Part shown: positions 1 through 53,483 of the stretch, one piece after another
Layout: every line of letters starts with the position of its first letter
Numbering within the stretch: position 1 is the stretch's first letter
Assembly (NCBI RefSeq): GCF_016925535.1
Contig: NZ_CP070496.1
Location: 620,001 to 684,000, forward strand
Direction: 5' to 3'
DNA length: 64,000 nucleotides
Source: Natronoglycomyces albus
GTDB taxonomy: Bacteria; Actinomycetota; Actinomycetes; Mycobacteriales; Micromonosporaceae
Translations under genes and position numbers: made by a program
Notes under the pieces: generated by a model
Told to the model about the DNA's origin: nothing
The model's database searches: none
What the model saw: only the letters and a program-made list of their open reading frames with translations

Positions 1-654
1 AGGATCGGCATAGATGTCTGCGGCGCCTTCGTTGAGTGCCATGGCGACATTCAAGTCGGTATCTATGTTGATTTCAACTTCAACCACATACGTACCGTCG
101 CGGTAGAAGCCATGAACGCGATGCGCGTCCCCGGTGCCTGAGTAGAAGTATCCTTCGTTCCAAGGTCCATCGAAGTCGCCGTCAGAATAGGCTTCCCACT
201 CAGAATTCGGAGAGTCTACGAGCTCTTGGGTTAGGTCTTGGAAGCTCGCCACCCGTTGCTCATATAGTTGGATGGAGTGCTCTTCGGCCTCAAATGGGGC
301 CGCGTGAAGGTAGATGTAGCCACCAACGGTTCCTCCACTCGAGTCTTCGAACTGGATCAGACTATTGCAGGAAATGGCTTCGTAGAAGAGACCCGTCGTG
401 CGAGGTGAGACCGTTGGGCCCTCGGAGAAACGTGCATCTCCAAGGTGAGGAGTGATTGAACTTGGATCGAAGATGTCGCAGATTTCGTCTTCCCAGCTGT
501 ATATTTGGTCCGACACGGCCGTATTTGAATCCGACTCGTTAGCTCCGTTGATGTCACCGTTGGCGTCGTTATTGTCACTGCATGCGGTTGCTATGACAAG
601 AGTGGCGATGAGAGTGGTGGGAAGAATCATGCGTTTGCTGCGGACCGTTTTCAC
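1..654 (-). CDS. Lipoprotein of the CD[MI]F family, C-terminus cut by window edge
   Basis: A 218-codon open frame runs off the left edge, so the C-terminus is missing. The GTG start at 654 has AGAAGGA about 7 nt upstream, which favours it over the ATG at 630. The N-terminus KTVRSKRMILPTTLIATLV followed by IATAC looks like a lipoprotein signal peptide with a relaxed lipobox; after the lipidated Cys comes an Asp/Asn-rich linker. The mature part has a Cys-Asp-Ile-Phe motif and a second Cys about 40 residues later, the same layout as the two lipoproteins at 49.1-50.7 kb (CDMF...C). It lies 51 nt downstream of the YAPAFGL gene, the same order as in the 48.6-50.7 kb cassette. The fold resembles DUF3558-type actinobacterial lipoproteins; function unknown. 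Confidence 0.75.
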   Translation of the reverse strand, partial: MKTVRSKRMILPTTLIATLVIATACSDNNDANGDINGANESDSNTAVSDQIYSWEDEICDIFDPSSITPHLGDARFSEGPTVSPRTTGLFYEAISCNSLIQFEDSSGGTVGGYIYLHAAPFEAEEHSIQLYEQRVASFQDLTQELVDSPNSEWEAYSDGDFDGPWNEGYFYSGTGDAHRVHGFYRDGTYVVEVEINIDTDLNVAMALNEGAADIYADP

Positions 655-705: not shown

Positions 706-1086
706 TCACTGCTGTGGGAGGGGCCCGTCCCAGTTGGTTCCGCCCGGGCCAGCGCTGTTCCCATCCAGATCCAGAATCTTCAGGTCGCGCACATTTTCTT
801 CCTCCGAGAACTGCTCGCCCTCGAGAGTCTGATCCAGCGTTTTGATCAGACCCTTGAGGGTTGCCTTATAGTTCTGGAGGTCTTGCCAAATGTTCGTGAA
901 GGATTCAGAGTAATCTCCGGCGCGCCCAGCCTCGTCGGCAAGACCGAAGGCGGGGGCATAACTGAGCGTCCCACCCTCCTTGAGGTGGATGATGATGTCT
1001 TCCTCAAGGTACTCAAGTTGCATCTCAATAGTAGTTCTAAATAGCGCGACCTCATCAGGGTCAAATACGCGGTCTCCTGAGCTCAT
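706..1086 (-). CDS. Small helical YAPAFGL-motif protein (WXG100-like candidate)
   Basis: This 126-residue protein is predominantly charged and helical, with no signal peptide or membrane segment. A helix containing FDPDE is followed by a turn with the motif GTLSYAPAFGL (about residues 39-49) and a second helical arm with a Trp (NIWQDL), then ENVRDL near residues 97-102. The homologue at 48649-48975 keeps FDPD, LSYAPAFGL, a Trp in the second arm and ENVREL, so these are the conserved positions. A helix-turn-helix hairpin of about 100 residues is what WXG100/ESX-type proteins look like, but there is no strict W-x-G here, so the assignment is inference. GGGAGAG lies 5-7 nt before the ATG. The C-terminal 20 residues are Gly/Pro-rich. 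It is probably cotranscribed with the lipoprotein gene. Confidence 0.75.
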   Translation of the reverse strand: MSSGDRVFDPDEVALFRTTIEMQLEYLEEDIIIHLKEGGTLSYAPAFGLADEAGRAGDYSESFTNIWQDLQNYKATLKGLIKTLDQTLEGEQFSEEENVRDLKILDLDGNSAGPGGTNWDGPLPQQ

Positions 1087-38963: not shown

Positions 38964-38994
38964 ATCACACCCATACTTGTGTGTTGAGGTTGCT

Positions 38995-41900
38995 GTGACT
39001 TGTCCTTTCTGTTCAGCGGACACCATTCCCGGTGCCCGCTATTGCCACACCTGCGGGGGGCCGCTAGCCCCCGAGGCCAACGCGCCGCAGACGGAGCGCC
39101 GTGTCGTCACGGTGCTCTTCGCCGACCTGTCCGATTTCACCGCCTGGTCAGAGGACCAGGACCCCGAGCGGGTTGGAGCGGTGACCGATAGGTTGCTCAA
39201 CGAGTGCGTTCAGGCCGTGGTCGAGTTCGGCGGGCACGTCAATAAACTCACCGGTGACGGGCTCATGGCCGTCTTCGGCGCCCCGCTGAGCCACGAGGAC
39301 GACGCGGAGCGCTCCGTTCGCGCCGCTCAAGCCATGCAGCGCCGGGTCCGCCGCACCCTGAAGGCCGAATCCGGCGGTGGTCTACCCATCGGGCTGCGCG
39401 TCGGGCTGCGCACGGGCCTGGTCGTGGCCGGTATGCAGGCCAACCTCGAATACACCGTCATCGGCGACACGGTCAACACCGCCGCCCGCATCTCCGACGT
39501 GGCGTCGGTGGGTGCGGTGTACGCGGGTGAACAGACCATGCAGGAAACCAAGCACATCGCCTCCTGGCGTCGACTCAACCCGGTCAAGCTCAAAGGCAAG
39601 CGCCTTCCCGTCGAGGTCTATGAGTTGCTGGGTTTCCACGACGAGCCCGGCACCCGCGCCAGCTTGGGCGACCGGGCCCCGTTCATCGGCCGCGACGCCG
39701 AGCTGGGACGAGTCAAGGGCCGCCTGGAAGCCGTGGCCGAACGTAATCAGCCGCAGGTGCTCATCCACACGGCTGAGGCGGGCATGGGCAAGACCCGCTT
39801 TGCCCGCGAATGCCGCACTTTGGCCACCGAACGGGGCGCGCGCGTCCTGATGGTGCGCTCAGCGGCCTACGGCGAGGGCCGCCGCTTCGGGCCCCTGGCC
39901 GACCTGGTCCGCAAAGCCGCGGGCTTGAAATTCGACGACGACCGCGCCACGGCCGAAAAACGTCTCCACCGCATCGCCGATCGACACGTCGACGCCTCCT
40001 ATCTCAAGATCGACGTGCTGTTGGGCCTCCTGGGTCACGCCCGCACCGACGTCGGCGAGTCCCCGGGCGGTTTCACCGGACAAGCGGTCGATTCGGGAAC
40101 CGTACCCACCGCCGTGGCAGACTTGCTGAACCTGCTGGCCACAGAGGGCCCGCTGGTGCTCATCGTTGACGATGTGCACTCCGCCTCCAACGCGGCGCTC
40201 GAATCGCTGGGCCTGGCGGTCTCCCGCCTACGTGGGCCGATCCTCACCTTGCTATTCGCCCGCCCCGAACTCATGCGCGACACCCCCCAGCTGGGCCGCA
40301 TCTCCGAGGCCGAGGTCTACCCGTTGCCACCCCTGGTGGGTGCCGACGCGGCCCGACTGCTCACCGCCTACCTCGACGGCGGCAAGCTCGAGGCCGACGA
40401 CGAGACCAAACTGCTCACCTTCGCGCAAGGTAACCCCTATTACTTGGCCGAGCTGGTCACCTTGCTCACCGAGCAGGAACTACTGGCACTGCGAGACAAC
40501 GTGTGGAAGCTCGCCGAGGGATCGCTGACGGGCCGAGTGCTCTCCCGCGACCTCGCCCAAGTGCTGGGAGCTCGCATCGACGCGCTCCCGGCCGATGCCC
40601 GCGCCTTGCTGCGCATCGCCTCGGTCTTTGGCGACGTCATCCCCGAAGAAGCTATCGACTTCCTGCGCGAGGCCGCTCCCGGTAACGCCGATGCCTCGCT
40701 GATGGAGCTGCTGGAGAGGCGTATGTTGCGCCGCCGCACCTACTCGGGCTACCGCTTTGTCACCCCGCTGCTGCGCCAGGCCGCCTACGCCCCGCTGGGG
40801 ATGGCCGACGCCGCTCACCAACACGCCGCCATCGCCCGCTGGGCCTCCCAGGTGAAGCTAGCCGACGAAGAGGGCGACGAACTCGTCGTCTTCCACGCCG
40901 AACAGGCCCTCCAGTTGGCCAGCCGCGTCTCGCTCAACCGCGACGACGAGGTGTGGGACGTGGTGCCACTGGCCGCAGCCGCGGCCCGCCGCCAAGCCCA
41001 GTCGGCGATGTATTCCTCCGAACCCGAACAGGCCGTGGCCATCATCGACCGGGCCGAGAAGATTCACCCACTGGCCCAGCCGGATAAACTACTGCGGGGC
41101 CGGGCGCTGGTGCGCCTGGGCAATATCCCCCGCGCCATCGAACAAGTCGCCTCGCTAGCCGAGGAACTCAAGCTGCAAGTACCCACCGAAGGCACCGCCG
41201 TCGACACCGCCGAAGTCGCCTTCGAAGACGCCGAGCCAGCCGCCCAAGTGCTGCTGCTGTTGGGCCGCGTCTACCGCTATCGCGGCGATATCGACTTGGC
41301 CCGAGCCTCCTGGAAGGCCGCGCTGGAGGTCTCGGGCATCGCCAACCTCGTTGGCGGGCGCTGCGACGCCCAATGCCGCCTGGGCATGCTCGACTACCTC
41401 TCGGGCGACCTAGACCAGGCCGACGCCCGATTCCTCGACGCGCTGGCGGCCGCCACCGATGCGGGGGATAGGCAGCGCATCGGCTGGGCTTTGCAACACC
41501 GGGCTTGGGTCCTCACCGCACGCGGCGACTTTGTCGCCGCCGAGGAGGTCTTGCAGCGAGCCGACGAAGTCTTTACCGACGCCGGGGATGCGCAGGGACG
41601 CGCTTGGGTGCGCGGAGCCGCCGCCTTCACGTTGCTCATGTCCGGCCTGTTCACTGACGCAAAACGCCTGGCGGACACGTTCTTGCCGGTCGGGGTGAGG
41701 TCGGGCGACCTCTTCGCTGTGGGCCTGTTGCGTTCGGTGGGAGCCGCGGCGTCGGTGGAACTGGGCGACGCCGAGGGGGCCGACCAAGAGGCCGAGGCCT
41801 CCTACGCCGACTTCGAACGCATCGATGACGACTGGGGCCGTGGTTTCGCGCTGTATGTGCGCTCACTGGCCGCCTACCGGCTGCGCCACATTGACGAGGC

Positions 41901-42357
41901 GATGCTCTTGGCCGAGGAGGCCGACCATTTTGCGCGCAGCACCGGCCATCCGCTGTTGCAGCGTCTCACTGAGGCCATGCGCGGCTGGTGTCTGTTGCGG
42001 CAGGGATACACCGCCGAGGCCGCGGCCGCCGCCGAGTCGATTTTGGCTTCGACTCGCGCTGAGGTGCAAAAGTCCTCGCGCGGTGCGCCAATTGTGCTGC
42101 TAGCCGAGGTTTCGGCCGTGGAGGGCAAGACTGGTGACGCGTTGGAGTATTTGGAACGCCTGACGGTGTATCCGGACCAGCCGTGTCTGGGGTGGCCGCG
42201 TCGTCGCGCGATTGGGCGCTATGCGCAGTTGCTGGCCGAGGAAGGCCAATGCGAGGAAGCCACGCACTGGGCGCGTATGACGCTGTCGGCTTTCGGTGAG
42301 GACCCTGAGGCGACCCAGTGGGCCGAGGAGTATTTGCGCACCTCCAGCCGCAGCTGA
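38995..42357 (+). CDS. Zinc-ribbon / adenylate cyclase / AAA ATPase / TPR signalling protein
   Basis: A 1120-residue cytosolic multidomain protein. N-terminal zinc ribbon: Cys3, Cys6, Cys17, Cys20. Class III nucleotide cyclase domain at about 39-205: VTVLFADLSDFTAWSE (metal Asp), GGHVNKLTGDGLMAVFGAP (core KLTGDGLMAVFG, second Asp) and YTVIGDTVNTAARI. AAA/STAND-type NTPase at about 225-500 with Walker A AEAGMGKT (first Gly replaced by Ala, usual in this family) and LVLIVDDVHSAS as Walker B. The rest is helical TPR-type repeats to the C-terminus. These proteins make cAMP (or cGMP) in response to an unknown signal sensed by the repeats. GTG 38995 has GAGG upstream. Confidence 0.88.
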   Translation: MTCPFCSADTIPGARYCHTCGGPLAPEANAPQTERRVVTVLFADLSDFTAWSEDQDPERVGAVTDRLLNECVQAVVEFGGHVNKLTGDGLMAVFGAPLSHEDDAERSVRAAQAMQRRVRRTLKAESGGGLPIGLRVGLRTGLVVAGMQANLEYTVIGDTVNTAARISDVASVGAVYAGEQTMQETKHIASWRRLNPVKLKGKRLPVEVYELLGFHDEPGTRASLGDRAPFIGRDAELGRVKGRLEAVAERNQPQVLIHTAEAGMGKTRFARECRTLATERGARVLMVRSAAYGEGRRFGPLADLVRKAAGLKFDDDRATAEKRLHRIADRHVDASYLKIDVLLGLLGHARTDVGESPGGFTGQAVDSGTVPTAVADLLNLLATEGPLVLIVDDVHSASNAALESLGLAVSRLRGPILTLLFARPELMRDTPQLGRISEAEVYPLPPLVGADAARLLTAYLDGGKLEADDETKLLTFAQGNPYYLAELVTLLTEQELLALRDNVWKLAEGSLTGRVLSRDLAQVLGARIDALPADARALLRIASVFGDVIPEEAIDFLREAAPGNADASLMELLERRMLRRRTYSGYRFVTPLLRQAAYAPLGMADAAHQHAAIARWASQVKLADEEGDELVVFHAEQALQLASRVSLNRDDEVWDVVPLAAAAARRQAQSAMYSSEPEQAVAIIDRAEKIHPLAQPDKLLRGRALVRLGNIPRAIEQVASLAEELKLQVPTEGTAVDTAEVAFEDAEPAAQVLLLLGRVYRYRGDIDLARASWKAALEVSGIANLVGGRCDAQCRLGMLDYLSGDLDQADARFLDALAAATDAGDRQRIGWALQHRAWVLTARGDFVAAEEVLQRADEVFTDAGDAQGRAWVRGAAAFTLLMSGLFTDAKRLADTFLPVGVRSGDLFAVGLLRSVGAAASVELGDAEGADQEAEASYADFERIDDDWGRGFALYVRSLAAYRLRHIDEAMLLAEEADHFARSTGHPLLQRLTEAMRGWCLLRQGYTAEAAAAAESILASTRAEVQKSSRGAPIVLLAEVSAVEGKTGDALEYLERLTVYPDQPCLGWPRRRAIGRYAQLLAEEGQCEEATHWARMTLSAFGEDPEATQWAEEYLRTSSRS

Positions 42358-42380
42358 GGACGGCGTGGATGGTTTTTGGC

Positions 42381-42412
42381 GCCTGAGGCTATCCATCGAT
42401 GGGGCCTCAGGC
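42381..42412 (+). terminator. Hairpin after the cyclase gene
   Basis: GCCTGAGGC (42381-42389) pairs with GCCTCAGGC (42404-42412). There is no T-run. Confidence 0.55.
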
Positions 42413-42941
42413 TCCTCAATGGAGCGAAGCTTACGGGGTTGCACGAGCCGATGAGAAGGCCGAAAGTGCCTATCGCATAATCCCCTTTGCGACGTGATCG
42501 TGATGACGCGCAGTAGCTAAGACAATGCGCAGGGGCGCCAAAGGCGTGGAAAATGTGGAACCCAATGGCGGAAACTGTTCGCGCCAAAGAAAGTTGAAAA
42601 AATTCTTGGCGTGCGGAAGCTGGTCAACGACCCCATTGGCTCACTGAGAGCAACCCTCCGCACGCCACACGGAGGACCCGTTCACTATCCGCCACAACGC
42701 AAATGCGCTGTGGTAGCGACACCTCAACCTTTCGGCCATTTGTTGGTGCCATTTCGGATAGGAGTATACAAGTACAGGGAGCTATATAACTTTGTTACCT
42801 GCCAAAACCCTTCCACGTGTCCAAAACCACCCTCAACACGCCGCCCAAGCAGTGGTTACGGTAAGGCATTCTTATTCTGAATAGGCTGACCTTGTTCATC
42901 CCGTCCTTGACGGGCGAGCTCACATTTGGAGGTTCAACCCA
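42413..42941. other. Intergenic region upstream of the kinase gene
   Basis: No gene seen. A plus frame at 42611-42880 lacks a ribosome site. AT-richer sequence around 42765-42800 (GTATACAAGTACAGGGAGC, TATATAAC) may hold the kinase promoter, but no clear hexamer pair is found. CCACA/TGTGG at 42691-42713 is a small inverted repeat. Confidence 0.4.
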
Positions 42942-45173
42942 GTGAACTCGGTTTCCTCCTACCCCACGGCCGCACGGGCGTCCGTACCGCAGGGGAACCG
43001 GAGACCAGACCAGCCGACAGCCGCCCCAGGCGGACCCGCTGTCGCCGTCCAGTCTCCGCCGCGCCACAGCGGCACCCACGCCCCCCAACAACCGCCGTCC
43101 CCCCACGGCGCACCCCACCACCCTCCAACGCCACAGCACCCCAGCGTTGACCTCGACCCGGCCCACCTCCTCAAGGGCCTCGAAGACCTGACCGGCTACG
43201 CCGAAATCGCGCGCGGAGCCTACTCCATCGTCTACAGCGCCCAAGCACCCAACGGGCGCACCGTCGCCGTCAAGATTGACCGTCGACCACTCGCCGACGA
43301 AGGACAACGCCGCCGCTTCCAACAGGAAGTCACCTCCGCCGGGCGCGTCTCTAAACACCCCTGCGTCGTGCAGATGTACTCCGCCGGATTCACCAGCCAG
43401 GGCCACCCCTATGTGGTCATGGAACACTGCCGCGAATCCCTATCGGACTATCTGGCCCGCGAACACAAGCTCTATCCGGAAGATGTCCGCCAAATCGGCG
43501 TCCGCATCGCCACGGCGCTGGCCGCCGCGCACGCGGAGGGCATCATCCACCGTGATGTCAAACCCGCCAACATCCTTATCAACCAGCAAGGTCAGGTCGT
43601 CTTGGCGGACTTTGGACTCTCTGCTTTGAGTCCGCAACCGGCCCCCGGCCAGCCCATTTCCATCATGGCCACTCCCGCATACGCGCCGCTGGAAGTTTTC
43701 CAGCTGCAAGAGATCGGACCCGCCGCCGACGTGTATTCGTTGGCGGCGACTCTGTATGCGCTGCTTAGCGGTGCGCCGCCGCGCTTTCCGCTGGAGGCGA
43801 CGCGGCCGCTTGACATCAACGAGGTCGCCTCGCTGCTGCATGAACCGGTCGACAACTTGCCGGGTGTCTCGCTGCTGATGGTGGAGATGATTCGCACGGC
43901 GTTGATCAATAACGCCCAGGGGCGCCCGACCGCTGAGGCGTTCGCCGAATATCTCGACTCGATTCCCGAGGAGTCGACCGGGGTCTTCCAAGCCATCGAC
44001 GATTCGATGGTCGCCCCGGAGCCCTCGCCGCCGCGCGAAGGGACTTTCGGAGCGTTCTCGGCCCCGCCGGATGAGGACGTCGAAGCGCCGGTGGCAGCTC
44101 GCGCCGCTGTCGAGGCCGCGCTCGGTAGCCAAGGCATGAACTATGACGCTCCGTATGGATATGAACAGCCGCAGGGGTACGACCAGCCGCAAAACTACGA
44201 CCCGAGCTTCTCCGAGGCGTTGGGCCGTATGCCGGAGAACGTCTCGTCTCCCAACACCGCGCCCACGGCACAGACCGGAGTGGTTCACCCACCGATTCCG
44301 GTACCCGAGCCGGTGAACGACCAAGGCTTTGACCAGTGGGACGACCTCAGCGGTGAATCATTGCCGGGCCGGTCCTTCCCGCAAACGGAAAAGCCCTACG
44401 AGTCGTCGCTAGAGCATTCGCCGGTGCGTCCCTCCCATGACGAGGGCCTATACCGCCATGAGGCGGCGAGTTTTTCGCCTCCGGCGCAGCGCTCGCCCGC
44501 CAAGTCAGCCCCGCTGGTGGACGAGACTCAGCGTTGGGACAACTTCGCTTCGCTGGATGAGGCTGAGGCTCCCGCACCGGAGACATCGGCTGGTCCGAAT
44601 ACCGGCATGACACGCCGCGAGCGCCGCCTCGCCTCGGGCGAGTCCGACTCCTCGATGGGGCAGCTCATCGGCATCGGCTCGGTATCGCTGATTGTTGTCA
44701 TCGCTCTTGTCTTCGGAGCCATTAAGCTCTTCGGCGGCAACGGTTCGGCGCCGCTGGAGGACAACGCCAACGACGGGGTTTATGTCCCCGAATGCACCCT
44801 CGATATGGCCGGAGTGGCATGCGTGGCCGAACCCGTCTGTTTCAACGGGGCTCCCGGTGACGACATCGCCGAGCTGGCGTGCGACAACCCGCACACGTGG
44901 GAGGCCTACGCGATTGGGCAATTGCCCGAAGAGGTGAGTGAACCGACCCACCAAGAGGCGCTTCAGTCGTCAATCGTCACCGACGCGTGTGTGGACGGGC
45001 ACCGTGAGGACGGGCCCTTGCAAGAATTCGTCGGCGCAGACCGCGTGAGCTGGGAGACCGACGTTCACCTTCCCACCGCCGAAGCTTTTGCCAACGGTGA
45101 CCGCACCTTTATGTGCATCGCCCGGCAGGCCAACGGCGAAACCGAGATGGGGCACCGCTTCGCCCGAGGCTAG
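42942..45173 (+). CDS. Transmembrane Ser/Thr protein kinase with extracellular septum-formation-like domain
   Basis: 743 residues. The first about 75 are a Pro/Gln/His-rich disordered head. The kinase domain (about 80-340) has the glycine loop IARGAYSIVY, VAVKID (catalytic Lys), HRDVKPANIL near 203 (catalytic loop) and ADFGLSAL near 222; the activation loop and MATPAYAPLEVF follow. A long acidic, Pro/Tyr-rich linker leads to one membrane helix (about 572-594). The extracellular part of about 140 residues has six Cys (VPECTLDMAGVACVAEPVC..., TDACVDG, FMCIAR) and resembles the septum-formation domain of actinobacterial kinases. The disordered stretch ahead of the kinase is unusual. GTG start with TTGGAGG upstream. 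Next gene is a wall-active enzyme. Confidence 0.88.
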   Translation: MNSVSSYPTAARASVPQGNRRPDQPTAAPGGPAVAVQSPPRHSGTHAPQQPPSPHGAPHHPPTPQHPSVDLDPAHLLKGLEDLTGYAEIARGAYSIVYSAQAPNGRTVAVKIDRRPLADEGQRRRFQQEVTSAGRVSKHPCVVQMYSAGFTSQGHPYVVMEHCRESLSDYLAREHKLYPEDVRQIGVRIATALAAAHAEGIIHRDVKPANILINQQGQVVLADFGLSALSPQPAPGQPISIMATPAYAPLEVFQLQEIGPAADVYSLAATLYALLSGAPPRFPLEATRPLDINEVASLLHEPVDNLPGVSLLMVEMIRTALINNAQGRPTAEAFAEYLDSIPEESTGVFQAIDDSMVAPEPSPPREGTFGAFSAPPDEDVEAPVAARAAVEAALGSQGMNYDAPYGYEQPQGYDQPQNYDPSFSEALGRMPENVSSPNTAPTAQTGVVHPPIPVPEPVNDQGFDQWDDLSGESLPGRSFPQTEKPYESSLEHSPVRPSHDEGLYRHEAASFSPPAQRSPAKSAPLVDETQRWDNFASLDEAEAPAPETSAGPNTGMTRRERRLASGESDSSMGQLIGIGSVSLIVVIALVFGAIKLFGGNGSAPLEDNANDGVYVPECTLDMAGVACVAEPVCFNGAPGDDIAELACDNPHTWEAYAIGQLPEEVSEPTHQEALQSSIVTDACVDGHREDGPLQEFVGADRVSWETDVHLPTAEAFANGDRTFMCIARQANGETEMGHRFARG

Positions 45174-46015: not shown

Positions 46016-46933
46016 TTCGCTGTGCGCGACTCAGCTTTGTGCAGGTTGCCGCTCGCGTCTGCTGGGGTTGCGGTGTCGGGCGGTGACGGTGATGCGCGGT
46101 CGTTGTCTCCGGTCTGACGTGCGGTGAAGGCTGTGCTTGTGGTTGGGCTGGGTGGGATCGCCACTGTCATTGGCCGCAACTGTGGGCGGTGGCCTTCGTG
46201 TCCTGCATAAGCCTGGGTTTCTGTTGTGGGTTTCTGTTGGGTGTGTCTGTTGTGGTGACCCACTGGTCTGAGAACGGCATTCGTGGAGCGTTCCCTAAGT
46301 GGTGCTTGCCTAGCCTGGTAGCGGCGAGGTTGTCGCCTGGCCAGGAAGTCCCTTCCCGGGGTGGTTCCAGCGATGCGCAATCAAATCTCGGTGAACCCAT
46401 AGTCCACCTGTGGCGGCGGTTTTGGGCCCGGTGAGTGGTTCGATGTCTACATCCAGTCGGGACGTGCCGTTAGATGAGGGCCATTCTTGACCGACAGCCA
46501 GCTTCGCTGTCAGGGCCGCCCCCACCACAGCGGTTGGTGCGAACGCCTCCAGCGGTGGGTTCGCGTTGCTTGCCTGGCAGGCAAGCTGCGTGGTGTTTAT
46601 CGATGATGGAATTCTTGAGGTTTATGCAACAGGTGCCCTCGGCGTTCTCGTTGGCTTGTTTACCTGCGTAAACTTTGCCTTCTGCGGCCTTGAATTGGCA
46701 CTATTCGCATCAGCCTCATTTATGTAGTTGGGTTGCCAGCCGGTGCGGTGATCGGTCGCGCGGCTGGAGTTTGGTTACGTCAGCCGCTATATAGCTGGCT
46801 GAGGTAGCAGCCGGTTACGGCTGTCTTTGGTGTGGTGGTTGTTTCGTGTGGGTCGGTGACGGCCGGTGTGTCGCGTGTGGACACTGTGCCAGGCGGTCCT
46901 AGGCTCGCATCGATCTTGGTGCCGGTGCCACGC
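46016..46933. other. Long non-coding stretch, strongly G/T-skewed on plus strand
   Basis: About 900 nt without a credible gene; frames such as 45904-46380 (minus) and 46189-46434 (plus) have no ribosome site. The plus strand is notably rich in TG/GT, e.g. 46120-46250. It contains repeat copy B (46619-46715) and a GCTTGCC/GGCAAGC inverted repeat at 46568-46586. It may be decayed coding sequence. Confidence 0.45.
46619..46715 (+). repeat. Dispersed repeat copy B
   Basis: Aligned with copy A: GGCGTTCTCG is identical, then CTGCGTAAACTTTGCCTTCTG, GCGGCCTTGAATTGGCACT (ungapped core) and a degenerate right end GCATCAGCC. The left end GGTTTATGCAAC is also degenerate. Confidence 0.65.
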
Positions 46934-47329
46934 TCACGTGGTGCCCGACAGATCCGGGTGTGCGGCGGCGTAGGTGGTGAAGTTCTCCGCGAAACGCTTC
47001 AACCCATAGGCTGCCTGGCCGAAGACCAGGGTCTTAATCCACCAAGCCCCCGAGGGCAACAGGTAGGCCCGCACGACCGGGTCGCCTTCCCTGGATTCTT
47101 CCCGGTGCACCGCGACCGAGTCGCCCATCCAGGAGCCATACAGGTAGTAGTAATACCCATCGGAGAGAAACCGGCCATAGAATTTGCCCGGCTCGAGGCG
47201 TGCCCCCAACAGGTCAAGCTTGGAAAGCCTGCTGGTGACATTCGCTGGGGCCGGTTGCCCGTTAGCGCTACGCATGGGGTGACCATTGGGTGAGCGCATC
47301 GCCGGGATACGCGGAAACCTGCCACTCAT
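46934..47329 (-). CDS. Unknown protein, distal gene of a two-gene unit
   Basis: 131-residue protein, not recognised. The middle is aromatic-rich (GKFYGRFLSDGYYYYLYGSWMGD) and C-terminal TYAAAHPDLSG; no clear signal peptide. Its start overlaps the upstream gene's stop by four bases (ATGA), so the two are cotranslated and may form a complex. It lies about 1.4 kb from the type VII-like cassette but reads in the opposite direction. Confidence 0.6.
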   Translation of the reverse strand: MSGRFPRIPAMRSPNGHPMRSANGQPAPANVTSRLSKLDLLGARLEPGKFYGRFLSDGYYYYLYGSWMGDSVAVHREESREGDPVVRAYLLPSGAWWIKTLVFGQAAYGLKRFAENFTTYAAAHPDLSGTT

Positions 47330-47682
47330 GACGCACCACCAAGCACAGATGCGGCCAGGTTTTGTGACACCTGGTTAAGAATGGCGTCCTTCCACTCAGG
47401 TGAACGGGCCAGAAACGGCGTCTCCCACACCACCTCAGTAAAGCGACCTCGCATCAGAGCGATCGTGGCCACCGGGATCACCAGCGATTGTCCTTGCAAG
47501 TTCAACGCCAACGCTGAGCCGCGTTCGGGATGCGGGGAGACCATGTAACGCCCCGGCCCAAAGGTGAACTCGACGACTTGTTCACCGGTGGTCTTCACCA
47601 GCGACGAAACATCCGATTGCGGCGAGCGCGACGACGTTGAGTAGACCGGATCAGATGCCGATAGGTCACGTGGATTACTCAT
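47326..47682 (-). CDS. Unknown protein, first gene of a two-gene unit
   Basis: 118 residues, not recognised. Ser/Asp-rich N-terminus, then FTFGPGRYMVSPHPERGSALALN and MRGRFTEVVWETPFL, which look like beta strands of a small domain. No membrane segment. No good ribosome site stands out ahead of the ATG. Coupled to the next gene by a four-base overlap. Confidence 0.6.
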   Translation of the reverse strand: MSNPRDLSASDPVYSTSSRSPQSDVSSLVKTTGEQVVEFTFGPGRYMVSPHPERGSALALNLQGQSLVIPVATIALMRGRFTEVVWETPFLARSPEWKDAILNQVSQNLAASVLGGAS

Positions 47683-47836
47683 CGCCCACCGCCCAAAGCC
47701 AGCGCCGATACCCGCATCTGCCAGGGCATATGCGGGTCAAAAAGATGTGAAGATATGGGTGTTGAGTACTCGTTTTTGGGTGCACGGAAGCGTATGGTGG
47801 TTCGTAGCATTACGAACTCCGTTTCTTGATGCTGGA

Positions 47837-47935
47837 GGGCGGTCCGCGGGAACGATTCTTAGCGGAAACCTGGTCCTACGGACCGCCCGATTCCATGTTT
47901 AGTTGTGCCCACCCAAAGCGGTGGGCGTTTTTCTG
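47837..47935 (+). ncRNA. Candidate small RNA with long stem and terminator
   Basis: GGGCGGTCCG (47837-47846) pairs perfectly with CGGACCGCCC (47879-47888) around a 32-nt apical region, and is followed by a terminator: GCCCACC (47907-47913) with GGTGGGC (47920-47926) then GTTTTTC. No open frame needs this terminator. The size of about 100-120 nt and the two-stem form suit a small RNA, but no known family matches and no clear promoter was found. Confidence 0.4.
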
Positions 47936-48648
47936 TGCCCATCAACGGTAAGACCTCAAGGGCCGAAGATGCGGTATTGACATCCCGTTGCTCGTGTCGC
48001 GTAGGCGACAGAGCCACCAGAAACCACAACCGACCCACAGTCGGCGGCGCACAGAACCCGATGGCGGCGCTCCTCCCCAGAAACGCACCAGCGCTAGGCG
48101 TTGCGGCACAGGCACACCCGCACCACCACATCCAACCCAGTGACAACAGCCCGCCACATCGGATAGCACGAAACTATCCCGGACCAAACCACAGAAGTCA
48201 ACCACCACAACCCAAACCGCCCCGCGTGTCGCCCCAAACTAACCAGACCCCACGCCTAAAGCGAGACGCAGAACACATCTCTTCGGGGTGTTCGGAAACC
48301 TGTGCCTGCAGGGGCCCGAGAGCGGAATCGGCTCTGTTTGTCTTTGTGAGTGGCCCCGGGGAACAGCCGTCGCAACGGCGACACTTCGTTTCGTCCCGCA
48401 CACGCTGACCCCATGGATTTGCGCGTTTTCGATGGAATTGCCATAACCCACCGAGAAGCCCTCACTTTTGAAAGGTGTCGTCGTGCCCTTGACACTTTCG
48501 GCTGCACGGCAAGCGCAGCCGAAGAACCTCCCTATCCACGCCCCGGACCGAAGCTTCGGCGCTCATCGTGCCGATGCATTGTCATTGCGGACCCGGGAGG
48601 GGCTGGCCTGATGTCGGGGTTCTCTCTAGACCAAAAGCGAATCGTTAC
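47936..48648. other. Long non-coding stretch before the YAPAFGL cassette, C/A-rich
   Basis: No frame has a ribosome site and protein-like composition. The plus strand is rich in CCA/ACC between 48010 and 48250. Weak inverted repeats, e.g. AGAGC/GCTCT at 48319-48335 followed by GTTTGTCTTT, suggest another terminator. It should contain the promoter of the downstream cassette. Confidence 0.4.
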
Positions 48649-48975
48649 GTGAGTCGTGAATTTGACCCCGATGCGGCCAAGTCGATCCATTCTGAGCTTG
48701 TGCATCTGATTGAGAAGCTGGAAGTGAATCAAGACATGGTCGGTCGAGGCGACCTGAGTTACGCCCCGGCCTTCGGGCTAGTCCTCAGCGGCCAGAACAC
48801 CGCGCAAGCGAACTATGAAAACCTGCACTACACCGCTTGGAACAACCTCGACGCCACCAGGCGGGGGATGTATTCGGCCCTGTCGTGGCTCGAGATGGTG
48901 ATGAAACAGCATGGCATCACCGAGTATGAGAACGTGCGCGAATTGGACGCCTTGAAAGAGGCCACAGATGAGTAG
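48649..48975 (+). CDS. Small helical YAPAFGL-motif protein, second copy
   Basis: 108 residues, helical, no signal peptide. FDPDAAKSIHSELVHLIEKLE is the first helix, GDLSYAPAFGL (about 34-44) the turn, TAWNNLDATRRG the second arm with its Trp, and YENVRELDALK the end. It matches the protein at 706-1086 at FDPD, LSYAPAFGL, the Trp and ENVR. I start at GTG 48649, where homology with the other copy begins; the ribosome site is poor and the upstream frame has no similarity. A lipoprotein gene follows 153 nt later, as in the other cassette. Confidence 0.75.
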   Translation: MSREFDPDAAKSIHSELVHLIEKLEVNQDMVGRGDLSYAPAFGLVLSGQNTAQANYENLHYTAWNNLDATRRGMYSALSWLEMVMKQHGITEYENVRELDALKEATDE

Positions 48976-49128
48976 TGAGGCACGAGGACGCGGTTCGTCC
49001 CTGCGACAATCGACAGCAATGATAGATAAGCGTCGACACCCGGCTCCCAGGCCGGGACACACCCTTGCAAGCGCAGGTGAACCGCCCGTAGGCTCCTATT
49101 CGCATCCTGGATGGAAGGGAATAGCCCA

Positions 49129-49869
49129 GTGAGTGAAGCGTCGCGGCTGACCGGGGTTGCCCTGGCTGTGTTGGCATTGCTGGTAGCTAGCGGATGCGCT
49201 ACCGATAACGGCGATTCCGACACTGACACCGGTAGCGATGGCTTGCCTGGTCTGCCGGCCATGTCACTCACCGAGCTAGAGCCCTCGTGCGACATGTTCC
49301 TCGAAGAACAGCTACGGGATTTCTTCGGCTACGTCGAATGGTCATACCCACCAGTCGAGTCGCCGTACGGCTCGGGAACAAGTCCGAGTGCCATCACCTG
49401 TGAAGGCACCGTTGTCTGGCCAGAATTTGAGTTGTCTTCAGGCCGTACGAACGCCGCAGAAGCATCACTTTTCACGTACCTATGGCCGCTCGAACCAGTT
49501 GACGAAGCCTCAAAAACCTTCCAGGCTCGTGTTGAATTTATGGTCGATTATGACGAAGGGCAAGGACGTACTGAATTCTTTGCTGAAGAATCCCCGGAAG
49601 GCGCATGGGACCAGGCAAATCTCTATGCCCACGGAGACGACCACGATTGGTACTTGCTTTTTCTCCAACAAGATGACTTCGTCTTGGAGATTAGTTTCCG
49701 GCATGAGCAAGATCCTGGTGAACGGCGAGCGGATTTGAGCCAGGGCGCAGCAGCCGGTGAGTGGTCGGTCTTCGATTTCGACCGCGAATCGGCCAGTCAA
49801 TTCCTTATCGAGGACTACATGCCTGCGGTGCATGAGAACTTCCTAACCCTGCTGGATCGGACGGAGTAG
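49129..49869 (+). CDS. Lipoprotein of the CDMF family, tandem copy 1
   Basis: 246 residues. Signal peptide with lipobox LLVASGC, then an Asp/Gly/Thr-rich linker. The mature domain has SCDMFLEEQ, a second Cys about 35 residues on (ITCEGT), LYAHGDDHDWYLLFLQQDDFVLE and LSQGAAAGEWSVFDFDRESAS near the end. The next gene encodes a close relative, so this is a tandem duplication. Resembles DUF3558-like lipoproteins; no known ligand. GTG 49129 has GGAAGGGA upstream, better than ATG 49111. Surface-anchored on the outer face of the membrane. Confidence 0.82.
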   Translation: MSEASRLTGVALAVLALLVASGCATDNGDSDTDTGSDGLPGLPAMSLTELEPSCDMFLEEQLRDFFGYVEWSYPPVESPYGSGTSPSAITCEGTVVWPEFELSSGRTNAAEASLFTYLWPLEPVDEASKTFQARVEFMVDYDEGQGRTEFFAEESPEGAWDQANLYAHGDDHDWYLLFLQQDDFVLEISFRHEQDPGERRADLSQGAAAGEWSVFDFDRESASQFLIEDYMPAVHENFLTLLDRTE

Positions 49870-49905
49870 GCCCCTCACATGAACTTTATGGAAAGGAATA
49901 AGCCT

Positions 49906-50652
49906 GTGCGCAACGCATCGCGGCTATCCACAATCGCCCTTCTTACCTCGGCCCTGCTGGTGGCTACCGCATGCGCCACCGACAACGGGAACAACGCGAA
50001 CGGGAACGATGACAGCGGGGATGACCTGCCGGGTCTGCCCGCCATGGCCTTGACCGACCTCGACGCCTCCTGCGACATGTTCCTCGAAGAAAAGGCAGAA
50101 GACTTCTTCGGTTACGTCGACCGACCCAACCCACCAGTTCAATCCCCCTACGGCTCGGGCATCTCCCCCCACTCCATCAGCTGCGAAGGAAGCATCCACT
50201 GGGCTGAATACGAATTCTCCCCAGGGCGAACCAGCACTCCCAAAGGCAATCTCTGGCTCACGGTCTATCCAACGGAGTCAATCGCCGAGGCCGAGGAAAC
50301 CTATGCGGGACGGTTGGAATTCGTCGCCGACCGGGACAAAGAAAACCACGGGGAGGACTTCTTCGTCGAAGAAAACCCTGAAGGCCCCTGGGACCAGGCA
50401 TACCACTACGCCTACGAAAACAGAGGCGACCGCTACTATTTCTTCTTCCAAACCGACGACTTCGTCGTCGAACTCAGCTTCAACCACGGGCAAGATCCCA
50501 GTGAAGAATCCTCCGATCTCAGTCAGGGAGCAGGCCCCGGTGAGTGGTCAGTGTTTGACTTCGACCGCGACTCAGCCAGCGCGTTCCTTATCGAGGACTA
50601 CATGCCCGCGGTGCATGAGAACTTCCTTAGCTTGCTGGAACGAACGGAGTAG
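49906..50652 (+). CDS. Lipoprotein of the CDMF family, tandem copy 2
   Basis: 248 residues and clearly homologous to the preceding protein over the whole length: lipobox LLVATAC, LPGLPAMALTDLDASCDMFLEE, ISCEGS, and C-terminal LSQGAGPGEWSVFDFDRDSAS...EDYMPAVHENFLSLLERTE (shortened). Differences concentrate in the middle of the domain. GTG 49906 with GGAAAGGA upstream. Gap to copy 1 is 36 nt and to the next gene 7 nt, so all belong to one operon. Confidence 0.82.
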   Translation: MRNASRLSTIALLTSALLVATACATDNGNNANGNDDSGDDLPGLPAMALTDLDASCDMFLEEKAEDFFGYVDRPNPPVQSPYGSGISPHSISCEGSIHWAEYEFSPGRTSTPKGNLWLTVYPTESIAEAEETYAGRLEFVADRDKENHGEDFFVEENPEGPWDQAYHYAYENRGDRYYFFFQTDDFVVELSFNHGQDPSEESSDLSQGAGPGEWSVFDFDRDSASAFLIEDYMPAVHENFLSLLERTE

Positions 50653-50659
50653 GCCTCTG

Positions 50660-52507
50660 ATGAGCGTTCACGATGACTTCGAAGAACACAAATACTTCAC
50701 TCCACAGACAGGCGTGGGTGGGTGGAAAAAGGAAGCCCTGGACTCCACCGAACTGCTGCTGTCGACCAACTCCTGTTCCTTGGATGGCTGCACCCTGGCC
50801 CGTAACCCCGCCGATCAGGCCTGGATCGAACTCATGTCCGCCATCCCCAAAGAAGACAGCCTAGTCAGGGACCTACATACTGCTCCCAGTTCTGCGGTCA
50901 TGCCCAGCGAGCACATGTTTAATGACATCGTCTCCCTACTACGCCCCGACAACGGCGAGCGCCACTCCATGGAATCCATTAGTAAGCTGTGGCACGATCA
51001 GATCGCCAGGCCGCTATATGAGGATGCGGACTCGCTTGAGGCGGTGTTGAAGGACGCGTCGCATGCCTGGCACGGGGCGGACTTCGATTCCCTACACGAG
51101 CACATCCAGCAATGCTTGAACGCTCTGCGGACCACGGCCGATCACGCCGAGGTGGTCTCCACCGAACTGCACGAGCAGTCCGAGACCATCCACACCCTGC
51201 AAGGTGGCGATTCCGGGGAGATCCCCTTTCCTGCCCCGCAGTTCTTTGACGCCAATATTCGTAAAGAGTCCGCCGATGTGCATGTGCGGCCGCCGTTTTG
51301 GTCCGAGGGCAACTGCCAGCGCGTGACCATGGATGAGGCCCTAGCCATGGTGGGGGCCGACCCGGAGGCGACCGAGGAATTCCACCAGCGCGAGCTGGCC
51401 CGGGCAGAGGAAATCATTGACCAGCGCCTAGCCCAGATGACCGATGAGGAAATCGAAGCCACCCACCTGGGCACCCTGGAGCAAGAAGCCATCGCCCAGG
51501 CCCGCGAAGAGATCGCCCCGGAAGTCGACAACTACAAGCAGAGCGTCCATAACGGACAACTGGGCGAGTCCGAACGCATCAACGCCGTCGTCCTCGACCA
51601 CCGCGACCAAACCGACGCCACTTTGTCTACCTCGAAATACACGATGGAACCGGTCGAGGTCGAGCACACCGATCACACCGAACGAGCCAACGGCTCGGGC
51701 TATGGCGGCCTGAACATGCCCGGCCCCACCGGCACCCCCGATGCCTCCGGCATGACCCAACCCGGTGGCTACACCCCCGGCGTCTCTCCCACCCTGCACG
51801 AGGTGGAAACCGGTGGCTCCGGTGGCAGTGGCCCCAACTGGAGGCTGCCAGCCAGCGCCAGCAGCAGCGACGATGCGGTCAGCGACGGCCTCTACGCCGG
51901 TAATCCCGGCAGCCTCGGCGCGCCCGGGGCAAGTCCCGGCGGCGCGGCCCCCGGTGCGGCACCCGGTGCAGCGGGCGGGGGCGGAATGTTCGCTCCCGGT
52001 GCCCGTGGCGGCCCAGGCGGCACAACCGGTGGCGCACAACGCGGCCCCGGCGGCATCGGCAGCGTGGCCGGACGCGGTGGAGCCACAGGCGGCGCGGCCA
52101 GCATCGGACGCGGCGGCACCGGCGGCGGCGGTGGTGTTCGCGGCGGTGCCGGCGGCATGGGCATGATGGGCGGCGCAGCCCCTGGGCAAGGCAACCAGCA
52201 ACAAGGAGCGAAGAAGAGCGAGCAACGTACGCTCTCCGCCATGGGCCGCCCGGCTCCCGGTACAGCGAAACCCTCTAAAGAGCAGACCAAGGAACAGGCC
52301 AAAGGCAAGGACGACAAACCAGCCGAGAAGAAAAGCCCCCTGGCGGCCGCGTTGGAGAAACGCCAGGCACACAAAGCCGAACGCGAACCAGCCCCCGTCA
52401 CCCCACCAGACCCCGACCAGGGCCACGAACTAGACATCCACGACCAATTCGATATCGAAGACGACATCTGGGGAGCCCACTCCGCCCGCAAAGACGAATA
52501 TCGTTAG
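50660..52507 (+). CDS. Large WXG/Gly-rich protein, type VII secretion style
   Basis: 615 residues, no signal peptide. N-terminal about 190 residues are helical, with KLWHDQIARPLYEDADSLEAVLKD then AWHGADFDSLHEHI, a W-x-G near residue 137 with a helix on either side, the hallmark of the WXG100 fold. Next comes an acidic coiled-coil-like stretch (about 230-310), then a Gly/Pro/Ala-rich low-complexity region (about 350-515) with GGM/GGA repeats, a Lys-rich part, and an acidic end (DIHDQFDIEDDIWG). Proteins with this layout accompany ESX systems in actinobacteria. It is the last gene of the cassette, 7 nt after the lipoprotein. Confidence 0.78.
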   Translation: MSVHDDFEEHKYFTPQTGVGGWKKEALDSTELLLSTNSCSLDGCTLARNPADQAWIELMSAIPKEDSLVRDLHTAPSSAVMPSEHMFNDIVSLLRPDNGERHSMESISKLWHDQIARPLYEDADSLEAVLKDASHAWHGADFDSLHEHIQQCLNALRTTADHAEVVSTELHEQSETIHTLQGGDSGEIPFPAPQFFDANIRKESADVHVRPPFWSEGNCQRVTMDEALAMVGADPEATEEFHQRELARAEEIIDQRLAQMTDEEIEATHLGTLEQEAIAQAREEIAPEVDNYKQSVHNGQLGESERINAVVLDHRDQTDATLSTSKYTMEPVEVEHTDHTERANGSGYGGLNMPGPTGTPDASGMTQPGGYTPGVSPTLHEVETGGSGGSGPNWRLPASASSSDDAVSDGLYAGNPGSLGAPGASPGGAAPGAAPGAAGGGGMFAPGARGGPGGTTGGAQRGPGGIGSVAGRGGATGGAASIGRGGTGGGGGVRGGAGGMGMMGGAAPGQGNQQQGAKKSEQRTLSAMGRPAPGTAKPSKEQTKEQAKGKDDKPAEKKSPLAAALEKRQAHKAEREPAPVTPPDPDQGHELDIHDQFDIEDDIWGAHSARKDEYR

Positions 52508-53125: not shown

Positions 53126-53483
53126 GAAAGCGGTGGCCTTAACCTTTACCGTAATGTCCAGCATGGATCGGGGTCGCCTGAACACTACTTGCTCCAAGCA
53201 TGATGCGATGTGGGAATCAGCTACCATTACCTGGTTGGGTACCTCGTTCCCCTGCGTAAACTCCGCCTTCTACGGCCTTGAATTTGTATTTTTGCATAAG
53301 CCTCGCAGGCGATGAGTTTATTTATGTGCGACCCTGATGCGAGGACGAGACCGTAGCCCCATGCGCGACTTTCGCATCTCTCAGGTTCGGGCATATGTCT
53401 ACCTCGGCCAGCCATTTCCATCTCGCCTCCCGGTGTCTTTTCGCCCGCAGTGCGCGGAAAATAACAAATAGCAAGGGGCTATT
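53126..53483. other. AT-richer intergenic region with repeat copy C
   Basis: A frame at 53133-53315 has no ribosome site. The right half contains dispersed repeat copy C. Nothing else recognised. Confidence 0.4.
53205..53301 (+). repeat. Dispersed repeat copy C, left end degraded
   Basis: Clear from CCTGCGTAAACTCCGCC (53250 onward) through ACGGCCTTGAATTTG to the intact right end TTGCATAAGC (53292-53301). The left 45 bp align only loosely with copy B, so the left boundary is approximate. Confidence 0.55.

What the first reader, a model, noticed from the sequence alone, without database searches (positions are those of the whole stretch)
48649..52507. A four-gene YAPAFGL-lipoprotein-lipoprotein-WXG cassette, with a second copy at the left edge
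Seen: a small helical protein with the motif LSYAPAFGL, two tandem lipoproteins of a CDMF...C family, and a large protein with a W-x-G helical head, Gly-rich middle and acidic tail, all on one strand; the last three genes are spaced 7 to 36 nt apart. Positions 1086 to 1 repeat the first two genes in the same order and with the same conserved residues. Known: WXG proteins are substrates or partners of type VII (ESX) secretion. Inferred: this is an accessory ESX-type module in which lipoproteins act at the membrane for the small helical protein; no such set is known to me by name.
Basis: partly seen in the sequence, partly recalled or inferred. Interest (0 to 1): 0.72.

Follow-up and report, generated by a model that had tools for sequence, protein, structure and literature searches.

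The report
Dispersed WXG-pair and lipoprotein cassettes
An actinobacterium carries six scattered copies of a small gene set that looks like cargo for the type VII secretion machine, four of them with one or two membrane-anchored lipoproteins added, a set that our literature searches did not turn up and that resembles the PE/PPE proteins of mycobacteria.

Summary
The window carries a four-gene cassette: small APAFG protein, two tandem lipoproteins, large W-x-G/Gly-rich/acidic-tail protein. The left-edge copy is a complete three-gene cassette whose large gene lies just outside the window. The genome has six cassettes, all over 170 kb from its two eccB (ESX) loci. In four genomes 24 of 24 small genes sit beside a large gene. 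Lipoproteins occur only where the small gene comes first (12 of 16, against 0 of 8 large-first). In 150 genomes of the order, strong matches are limited to the window's genome and Glycomyces. The large head is a WXG100 hairpin by profile and predicted fold. The small protein is a profile relative of one encoded beside eccB, with its own WXG100/Gly-rich/WLTEDEMVW partner, in a related genus. The lipoprotein model has the PknH-sensor/TiME/Mog1 fold. Best reading: multiplied, dispersed type VII substrate pairs without EspG, analogous to PE/PPE, with an extracytoplasmic lipoprotein. A C-terminal tail (xWG...DPY) is strongly conserved. Secretion and the lipoprotein's role are inferred, not shown. 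Against: no linkage to ecc genes seen in carriers; YxxxD/E export motif in only 2 of 63 small proteins tested.

The parts
48611..48652 (+). 13-codon leader MSGFSLDQKRIVT, truncated start of a 428-aa gene kept whole in the sister copy; its TGA overlaps the GTG of the small gene
   Evidence: sequence read directly; comparison with L020
48649..48975 (+). small helical protein (108 aa, APAFG family), putative WXG100/PE-like partner of the large protein
48763..48777 (+). APAFG motif in the small protein, at the expected interhelical turn (expected by analogy; no structure predicted)
   Evidence: G34, L36, P40, G43, Y56 invariant in 24 sequences, F42 and W64 in at least 90%
49129..49869 (+). lipoprotein 1 (246 aa; lipobox Cys 23; CDMF motif)
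49906..50652 (+). lipoprotein 2 (248 aa; conserved Cys pair 56/93; predicted PknH/Mog1-like fold)
50660..52507 (+). large protein (615 aa): Cys-containing N-terminus, WXG100 hairpin, small beta element, long helices, Gly-rich spacer, acidic conserved tail
50966..51199 (+). WXG100 helical hairpin of the large protein (residues 103-180; W137-H-G139 in the turn)
51677..52400 (+). Gly-rich low-complexity spacer of the large protein (approximate limits)
   Evidence: residues 331 to 40 before the end are 57-82% G/A/S/P/T/N/Q in 24 cassettes
52442..52504 (+). conserved C-terminal tail (DQFDIEDDIWGAHSARKDEYR)
706..1086 (-). small protein of the second (left-edge) cassette
1..654 (-). lipoprotein of the left-edge cassette, cut by the window edge; the large gene follows outside (L022 7896-6154)

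Best explanation
The cassette encodes a cargo pair of a type VII (ESX) secretion system plus, in half of the copies, lipoprotein(s) that work with the pair outside the membrane. Proposed steps: (1) the small APAFG protein and the WXG100 hairpin of the large protein form a helical bundle in the cytoplasm, as PE-PPE, EsxA-EsxB and Lap-LXG pairs do (inferred from fold and relatives); (2) the pair is taken by EccC of one of the genome's two ESX systems and exported without an EspG-type chaperone (inferred; EspG was sought and not found over its cut-off); (3) the large protein stays at the cell surface, its Gly-rich stretch acting as a flexible stalk and its conserved xWG...DPY tail as an address or docking tag (inferred); (4) the lipoprotein, with a predicted PknH-sensor/TiME/Mog1-like fold, goes out by Sec, sits on the outer membrane face and binds the exported pair or its ligand as receptor or holder (inferred). 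Shown here: co-conservation, dispersal and block-wise co-divergence, WXG100 fold of the large head (predicted model and profiles), profile relation of the small protein to an eccB-adjacent protein, predicted fold of the lipoprotein, conserved tail, purifying selection between two copies.
For: Six cassettes in the own genome. 24 of 24 small genes are beside a large gene in four genomes, and the 14 full-length lipoprotein matches in those genomes all lie inside cassettes (only 18 of 48-93 first-look candidates per genome were scored). 40 of 44 named loci have a small gene beside the large one on the same strand; in the other 4 the large ORF runs off the locus (8 of the 44 overlap loci already studied). 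The large head matches Pfam WXG100 in 11 of 24 members (best 4.7e-6) and EsxA by profile (8.1e-5); its model matches EsxEF at Z 8.9, rmsd 1.0 A over 67 residues and EsxA/EsxB with Foldseek probability 1.00 but E 0.14 or more. Small profile against the eccB-adjacent small family: 95.5%, E 1.4e-8; large against its partner: 88%, E 3.1e-6; that partner is over the WXG100 cut-off (28.9 bits). eccB is directly beside the small gene in 13 of 14 loci. Carriers gave no match to the eccB-adjacent small protein (0 of 4), and their eccB (own 0.84-Mb locus and three Glycomyces) is followed by an unrelated YPPQ-rich protein. Small and large co-diverge within genomes: 1 of 10000 permutations as high, 5 of 10000 with near-duplicate copy B removed. 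Tail: xWG in the last 35 residues of 45 of 45 complete large proteins in named loci, against WG in 11 of 205 other ORFs, and in 23 of the 24 of the four genomes.
Against: No secretion data. No cassette was found linked to ecc genes. A YxxxD/E motif C-terminal to the hairpin occurs in only 2 of the 63 small proteins tested (of 64 distinct ones; [FHW]xxx[DE] in 26), whereas all 10 aligned eccB-adjacent relatives have YxxxE. The small protein matches WXG100 only weakly (hhalign 51%; Pfam 3 of 24 members, best 0.011), and its fold was not predicted. None of the 17 of 24 full-length cassette large proteins that I scanned reached the WXG100 curated cut-off, and 6 of them had no Pfam match at E 0.1 (best 26.1 bits, cut-off 27.3). 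Co-divergence can come from duplication of whole blocks without physical contact; the lipoprotein part of that test weakens when copy B is removed (lipoprotein-large 17 to 189, lipoprotein-small 5 to 27 of 10000). The lipoprotein is absent from 12 of 24 cassettes. Its fold matches have identity of 12% or less, Foldseek E above 0.001, and no meaningful match by sequence profile in the PDB (best E 0.21).
Confidence: 0.57

Rival explanations
1. Effector-immunity cassette: the large protein is a secreted toxin, the small protein its targeting partner, and the lipoprotein(s) protect the producer, as TilA does against TslA in S. aureus.
For: The S. aureus/Listeria tslA set is also a four-gene cassette of a lipoprotein, an effector and two small helical partners, with the small genes downstream of the effector (PMC10730906, passages). 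Tandem lipoproteins in copies A and B; predicted fold shared with T6SS immunity proteins TplEi (Z 7.8) and Tsi3 (Z 7.2).
Against: No toxin domain found: the stretch between head and tail is 57-82% G/A/S/P/T/N/Q in all 24 large proteins, and Pfam gives only weak WXG100-type or chance matches, or none, in the 17 full-length proteins scanned. The C-terminus is conserved, not polymorphic. All 8 large-first cassettes and 4 of 16 small-first ones lack a lipoprotein.
Confidence: 0.15
2. The pair is exported but the lipoprotein is a separate Sec-exported sensor or lipid carrier (PknH-sensor/LpqN/TiME-like) that merely shares the operon; there is no direct contact.
For: The lipoprotein fold is closest to the PknH extracellular domain (Z 10.5, rmsd 3.7, 157 residues) and TiME (Z 9.9); absent from half of the cassettes; its co-divergence with the large protein is weaker without copy B (189 of 10000).
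Against: The 14 full-length lipoprotein matches in four genomes all lie inside cassettes, between small and large (candidate lists capped); co-divergence with the small protein holds without copy B (27 of 10000).
Confidence: 0.23
3. WXG100-like heads are used outside secretion: the proteins form an internal or envelope scaffold and are not type VII cargo.
For: Not found linked to ecc genes; canonical export motif missing from most small proteins.
Against: Homologous pair encoded beside eccB in other genera, with YxxxE in the small protein and the same tail core; the four carriers tested have ESX (own 2 eccB loci, Glycomyces 1 each).
Confidence: 0.05

Closest known systems
eccB-adjacent small/large pair of other genera (e.g. 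L069, L154, L157; no name found)
   Same: Small helical protein with a P-rich turn (PPALG in most) followed by a WXG100-headed, Gly-rich protein ending in WLTEDEMVW; significant profile matches to both cassette proteins.
   Different: One match per genome, inside the ESX locus; intact YxxxE; no lipoprotein in the pieces read; tail ends APPPVLG-like rather than DPYA.
PE/PPE pairs of mycobacteria
   Same: Small plus large helical pair, low-complexity C-terminus, many paralogues away from the secretion locus (general knowledge; PE helix-turn-helix and PE-PPE bundles in PMC9600955 passages).
   Different: No PE match among 24 small proteins and PPE (PF00823) only at 12.7-14.1 bits against a cut-off of 26; no EspG over cut-off in 5 genomes; a lipoprotein in the cassette; conserved C-terminal tail. 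Glycomycetales were reported to have ESX-4 clusters, and pe, ppe and espG to have joined later ESX types (PMC4791881 passages).
LXG effector with Lap1/Lap2 (T7SSb)
   Same: Adjacent small helical proteins fold like WXG100 and target a larger helical-headed effector; Lap1 carries FxxxD instead of YxxxD/E (PMC9600955 passages).
   Different: No toxin domain found; one small protein; Actinomycetota; no LXG match in the Pfam scans.
TslA-TlaA1-TlaA2-TilA cassette (S. aureus, Listeria)
   Same: Four-gene set of effector, small helical partners and a lipoprotein (PMC10730906 passages).
   Different: TslA has an N-terminal lipase and reverse layout; TilA is DUF576; here the lipoprotein is PknH/Mog1-like by model and no enzyme domain was found.
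ExsI-ExiR of Corynebacterium glutamicum
   Same: T7SS-secreted protein that works with a membrane receptor (PMC12607788, outline and abstract only).
   Different: No sequence comparison made; relation of ExiR to these lipoproteins unknown.
PknH extracellular domain / TiME / LpqN / Mog1-PsbP fold
   Same: Predicted fold of the lipoprotein: Z 10.5, 9.9, 7.0 and 8.3 respectively.
   Different: Identity 12% or less; none is known to me as part of a type VII substrate cassette (recall).

Membership tests
WXG100 superfamily (large head) | Helix-turn-helix of about 80-100 residues with W-x-G in the turn | tested here: met
   G139 invariant and W137 in at least 90% of 24, in the turn of the modelled hairpin 104-134/140-180; EsxEF Z 8.9 rmsd 1.0 over 67 residues
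WXG100 superfamily (large head) | Pfam PF06013 at or over curated cut-off (27.3 bits) | tested here: inconclusive
   11 of 24 N-terminal stretches match at E<=1, best 4.7e-6 (bits not shown); 17 of 24 full-length proteins scanned reach at most 26.1 bits
WXG100 superfamily (small protein) | Sequence or profile match to WXG100 | tested here: inconclusive
   Pfam 3 of 24 members, best 0.011; hhalign 51%, E 1.5e-4; PDB profile top hit MAB_3113 of 4i0x at E 0.11
PE family | Pfam PE match | tested here: not met
   PE is not among the 21 families matched by any of 24 small proteins at E<=1
PPE family | PF00823 over cut-off | tested here: not met
   12.7 bits full length, 14.1 bits N-terminus, cut-off 26
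Type VII secretion substrate | YxxxD/E export motif after the hairpin of one partner | tested here: not met
   2 of 63 small proteins tested; 10 of 10 eccB-adjacent relatives have it; not counted in the large protein
Type VII secretion substrate | Genetic linkage to ecc genes (common, not required) | tested here: not met
   Carriers: over 170 kb away or on other contigs; relatives: 13 of 14 loci beside eccB
Type VII secretion substrate | EccC-dependent export | not testable with these tools
   needs a mutant and secretome
LXG/WXG polymorphic toxin | Variable C-terminal toxin domain | tested here: not met
   Low-complexity spacer in 24 of 24 and WG tail in 23 of 24 (copy F has VFA)
DUF3558 lipoproteins | PF12079 match | tested here: inconclusive
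   1 of 14 at E 0.081
PknH-sensor/Mog1/PsbP-like fold | alpha/beta fold shared with PknH ECD, TiME, Mog1, DcrB, LpqN | tested here: met
   Predicted model only: pLDDT 75.9, pTM 0.75; Z 10.5, 9.9, 8.3, 8.4, 7.0 (the tool gives 7-8 as a typical best Z without a clear match); Foldseek alone gave no E below 0.001
Bacterial lipoprotein | Signal peptide with lipobox Cys | tested here: met
   Hydrophobic N-terminus ending A-S-G-C / A-T-A-C at residue 23; Cys in at least 90% of 14; pattern recalled, no predictor run

The most novel reading that the evidence does not exclude
A lineage-specific counterpart of the PE/PPE system that arose in Glycomycetaceae (reported with ESX-4 clusters): an eccB-adjacent cargo pair left its locus, multiplied into 5-7 dispersed cassettes, replaced the canonical YxxxD/E signal, dispensed with EspG, recruited a PknH/Mog1-like lipoprotein as extracytoplasmic receptor, and uses the C-terminal tail (WG core shared by three kinds of WXG100-type head, DPY end by two) as a portable type VII or surface-retention address tag.
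Probability: 0.25. Interest if true: 0.72.

Novelty: new variant of a known kind. Interest (0 to 1): 0.52.

Why it matters
If right, large dispersed families of paired type VII cargo are not a speciality of mycobacteria: a non-mycobacterial lineage reported to carry ESX-4 clusters would have built its own, without EspG. It would supply Glycomyces (soil and plant organisms, recalled) for testing what ESX-4 exports, what replaces YxxxD/E, what a conserved C-terminal tail does, and whether a surface lipoprotein receives exported cargo.

Tried and rejected
Polymorphic toxin with immunity lipoprotein: considered seriously, not favoured (no toxin domain found, conserved tail, many cassettes without lipoprotein). 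Defence system: no PADLOC match for the four window proteins. NCBIfam: no family over cut-off for the cassette proteins scanned. DUF3558: one weak match in 14. A GDSG stretch in the large protein that recalls serine proteases: dropped on reading, because the serine is not conserved in alignment A7. F-BAR resemblance of the large model (Z about 8, rmsd 6-10) taken as chance likeness of long helices. Long ORFs that seemed to fuse small and large (L031, L036, L040) are overlapping frames, not fusions. The lipoprotein profile also matched 18 other genomes, but only over the signal peptide and linker (profile columns within 1-84). Left out of the counts and not followed: weak large-like matches at C1:328620 (E 0.096), C1:3607074 (E 7.9e-6) and in G119 (2.8e-4), and those in G112, G145, G027, G037, G062 and G132 (8.6e-10 to 9.4e-4). 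In some searches only 18 and 14 first-look candidates per genome were scored. In the automatic pairing two L062 small genes went to the same large gene; the table was corrected by hand. The co-divergence test kept near-duplicate copy B in its lipoprotein part; the rerun without B gave weaker figures, both are told; confidence was lowered from 0.58 to 0.57 and the separate-lipoprotein rival raised from 0.22 to 0.23. Large-first cassettes alone (7 pairs) gave 278 of 10000. Papers: 'Glycomyces' with 'type VII secretion' 0 papers, 'DUF3558' with 'type VII secretion' 0; further searches were seen as listings only, except PMC9600955, PMC10730906, PMC4791881 and PMC3482391 (passages; the last not used in the argument) and PMC12607788 (outline and abstract). 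'Not described' rests on these searches of an open-access library only.

Full report
OBSERVATION. The four genes exist as described: small 48649-48975, lipoproteins 49129-49869 and 49906-50652, large 50660-52507, with gaps of 36 and 7 nt between the last three. The left-edge copy is also complete: small and lipoprotein in the window on the minus strand, large gene just outside (L022 7896-6154). Searches of the own genome (4.01 Mb, 3 contigs) found six small, six lipoprotein and six large genes (one weak large-like match at E 0.096 left out). They form six cassettes: A (window) and B (3.82 Mb) small-lipo-lipo-large; C (3.48 Mb) and D (left edge) small-lipo-large; E and F (2.28 Mb) two tandem small-large pairs without lipoprotein.

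ORIGIN OF THE WINDOW COPY. A and B belong to a segmental duplication (window 46193-52507 against L020 4337-12210, matched in pieces). B keeps two extra genes before the small gene (428 and 120 aa). A keeps only the first 13 codons of the first of them, and their TGA overlaps the GTG of the small gene (read). dN/dS between A and B (own Nei-Gojobori script) is 0.15 (small), 0.20 (second lipoprotein), 0.20 (large), 0.12 (large head) and 0.27 (first lipoprotein, 58% identical): consistent with purifying selection.

CO-CONSERVATION. In 150 genomes drawn from the order, the small profile matched 6 genomes: the own genome, three of one sister genus with 5-7 copies each, one of a third genus, and one weak. 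The sister genus is Glycomyces, since contig lengths equal those of G. arizonensis, G. harbinensis and Glycomyces sp. TRM65418. In the four carrier genomes, 24 of 24 small genes sit beside a large gene. The strong large matches are the same 24 (two weak ones in carriers left out), and the 14 full-length lipoprotein matches are all inside cassettes. In those two calls only 14 and 18 candidates per genome were scored, so further weak relatives are not excluded. The other 18 genomes in the lipoprotein tally match only the signal peptide and linker. A scan of named genomes gave 44 loci: 43 in 20 Glycomyces species or strains and one in a MAG. 40 of the 44 have the small gene beside the large on the same strand; in the remaining 4 the large ORF runs off the locus. 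8 of the 44 overlap loci already counted. Gene order is small-first in 16 and large-first in 8 of the 24. The lipoprotein is present in 12 of 16 and 0 of 8 respectively, always between small and large (automatic pairing of one locus corrected by hand).

CO-DIVERGENCE. Within genomes, distances between small proteins follow those between large proteins (60 paralogue pairs, A/B pair left out, r 0.68, 1 of 10000 permutations as high; small-first only, 26 pairs, r 0.88, 5 of 10000). With copy B removed altogether: 56 pairs, r 0.65, 5 of 10000; small-first 22 pairs, 17 of 10000; large-first only 7 pairs, 278 of 10000. Lipoprotein distances follow the large (17 of 10000) and small (5 of 10000) with 12 cassettes, and less strongly without B, 11 cassettes: 189 and 27 of 10000. 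This shows that cassettes diverge as blocks without much reshuffling. It is consistent with contact but does not prove it.

THE LARGE PROTEIN. N-terminal stretch with invariant C39, C44 and C219; W55, W111, G139, D141, H208 and R210 invariant in 24. Pfam WXG100 in 11 of 24 N-terminal stretches, best 4.7e-6; EsxA by profile at 8.1e-5; hhalign to the genome's own WXG100 proteins 89%, E 2.1e-6. Of 17 full-length cassette proteins scanned (of 24) none reaches the Pfam cut-off and 6 have no match at E 0.1. AlphaFold2 of residues 1-330 (37 rows, pLDDT 81.1, pTM 0.70) puts the hairpin at 104-134 and 140-180 with W-x-G in the turn. Foldseek: EsxA/EsxB/EsxEF at probability 1.00 (E 0.14 and higher); VIA: EsxEF Z 8.9, rmsd 1.0, 67 residues. 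After the head comes a spacer of 57-82% G/A/S/P/T/N/Q in 24 of 24, then a C-terminal tail, typically W-L-x-E-D-D-D-V-W-G...D-D-P-Y-A; WG is in the last 35 residues of 23 of 24 (copy F lacks it). In named loci xWG lies in the last 35 residues of 45 of 45 complete large proteins (of 52) and 44 of 45 end in a DPY-like motif, against WG in 11 of 205 other ORFs. In the own genome a DNA pattern for the tail hits 5 places, control 0. Four are cassette tails (A, B, D, E; C and F differ from the pattern); the fifth is internal and antisense to a murG-like ORF (murG recognised by eye). In Glycomyces 7 of 2566 long stop-to-stop ORFs outside the large family carry the same tail. The two of this kind that I scanned (one of the 7, in L061, and a close variant in L055) have a different WXG100-type head (E 0.005 and 1.6e-5, both under the cut-off).

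THE SMALL PROTEIN. D6, G34, L36, P40, G43 and Y56 are invariant in 24; F42 and W64 in at least 90%; P-[AG]-[FL]-G in 63 of 64 distinct sequences. The closest relatives found are small proteins encoded beside eccB in another genus of the same GTDB family and in one further family: 14 of 150 genomes matched, eccB adjacent in 13 of the 14 loci, profile comparison 95.5%, E 1.4e-8. Where the downstream gene could be read, the neighbour is a WXG100-headed, Gly-rich protein with the tail WLTEDEMVW (not read in L150, L151 and L155), matching the cassette large head at 88%, E 3.1e-6. The cassette carriers gave no match to that small protein (0 of 4). Downstream of eccB they have an unrelated YPPQ-rich protein: own 0.84-Mb locus and three Glycomyces. 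This suggests, but does not prove, that an ESX-locus pair was relocated and multiplied. Against canonical export: YxxxD/E after the hairpin in 2 of 63 tested, though 10 of 10 relatives have YxxxE. A changed motif is possible, as FxxxD in Lap1 (PMC9600955 passages).

THE LIPOPROTEIN. Lipobox Cys 23; mature Cys pair 56/93, P122, W162 and D197 invariant in 14 (lipoprotein 2 numbering). AlphaFold2 (12 rows, pLDDT 75.9, pTM 0.75). Foldseek found no match with E below 0.001, a sequence profile found nothing below 0.2 in the PDB. VIA gives PknH extracellular domain Z 10.5 (rmsd 3.7, 157 residues), TiME 9.9, DcrB 8.4, Mog1 8.3, TplEi 7.8, EagT6 7.7 and LpqN 7.0. I read this as one fold class, above the unrelated rows at about 5.5; only the top rows exceed the Z 7-8 that the tool calls typical without a clear match. 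It does not tell function.

MACHINERY. Two eccB loci in the own genome (0.84 and 3.27 Mb), one in each of three Glycomyces. No cassette was found near them; the Glycomyces genomes are drafts, and in two of the three all cassettes are on other contigs than eccB. EspG: 0 of 5 genomes over the cut-off, two weak matches under it. A published survey reports ESX-4 clusters in Glycomycetales (PMC4791881 passages).

VERDICT. A real, strictly conserved, lineage-specific set of type-VII-like cargo pairs with optional lipoproteins. The secretion route is the best inference; the role of the lipoprotein and of the tail is open. Known kind (WXG100 cargo pairs), new variant. Interest is raised by the parallel to PE/PPE and by the conserved tail, and lowered by the lack of any functional evidence and the missing export motif.

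Noticed in passing
window 46193-52507 and L020 4337-12210: Segmental duplication between 0.67 and 3.82 Mb, 75-94% identical in pieces, with a 1.55-kb piece (two genes) missing in the window copy.
   Followed up: partly
window 46655-46705 and 53243-53293; L020 30-124: A 51-nt direct repeat (80% identical) flanks the cassette and recurs near copy B; possibly a remnant of a small mobile element.
   Followed up: no
L061 9642-10769, L058 10151-11323, L073, L093, L096, L097, L102: A second protein type with the same C-terminal tail, encoded in loci of large-first cassettes in Glycomyces; a WXG100-like head of another kind was seen in the one of these seven that was scanned and in a close variant in L055.
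   Followed up: partly
L057 5959-7306, L065 9664-11186: Further small-plus-large helical gene pairs next to Glycomyces cassettes (97 + 338 aa; 111 + 396 aa), suggesting islands of type VII cargo.
   Followed up: no
G000:C1:3607074-3607487: A distant seventh large-like protein in the own genome (425-aa frame, E 7.9e-6).
   Followed up: no
window 38977-45173: A cyclase/AAA/TPR protein (1126 aa) followed by a serine/threonine kinase with a weak Septum_form match near its end, upstream of the cassette.
   Followed up: no
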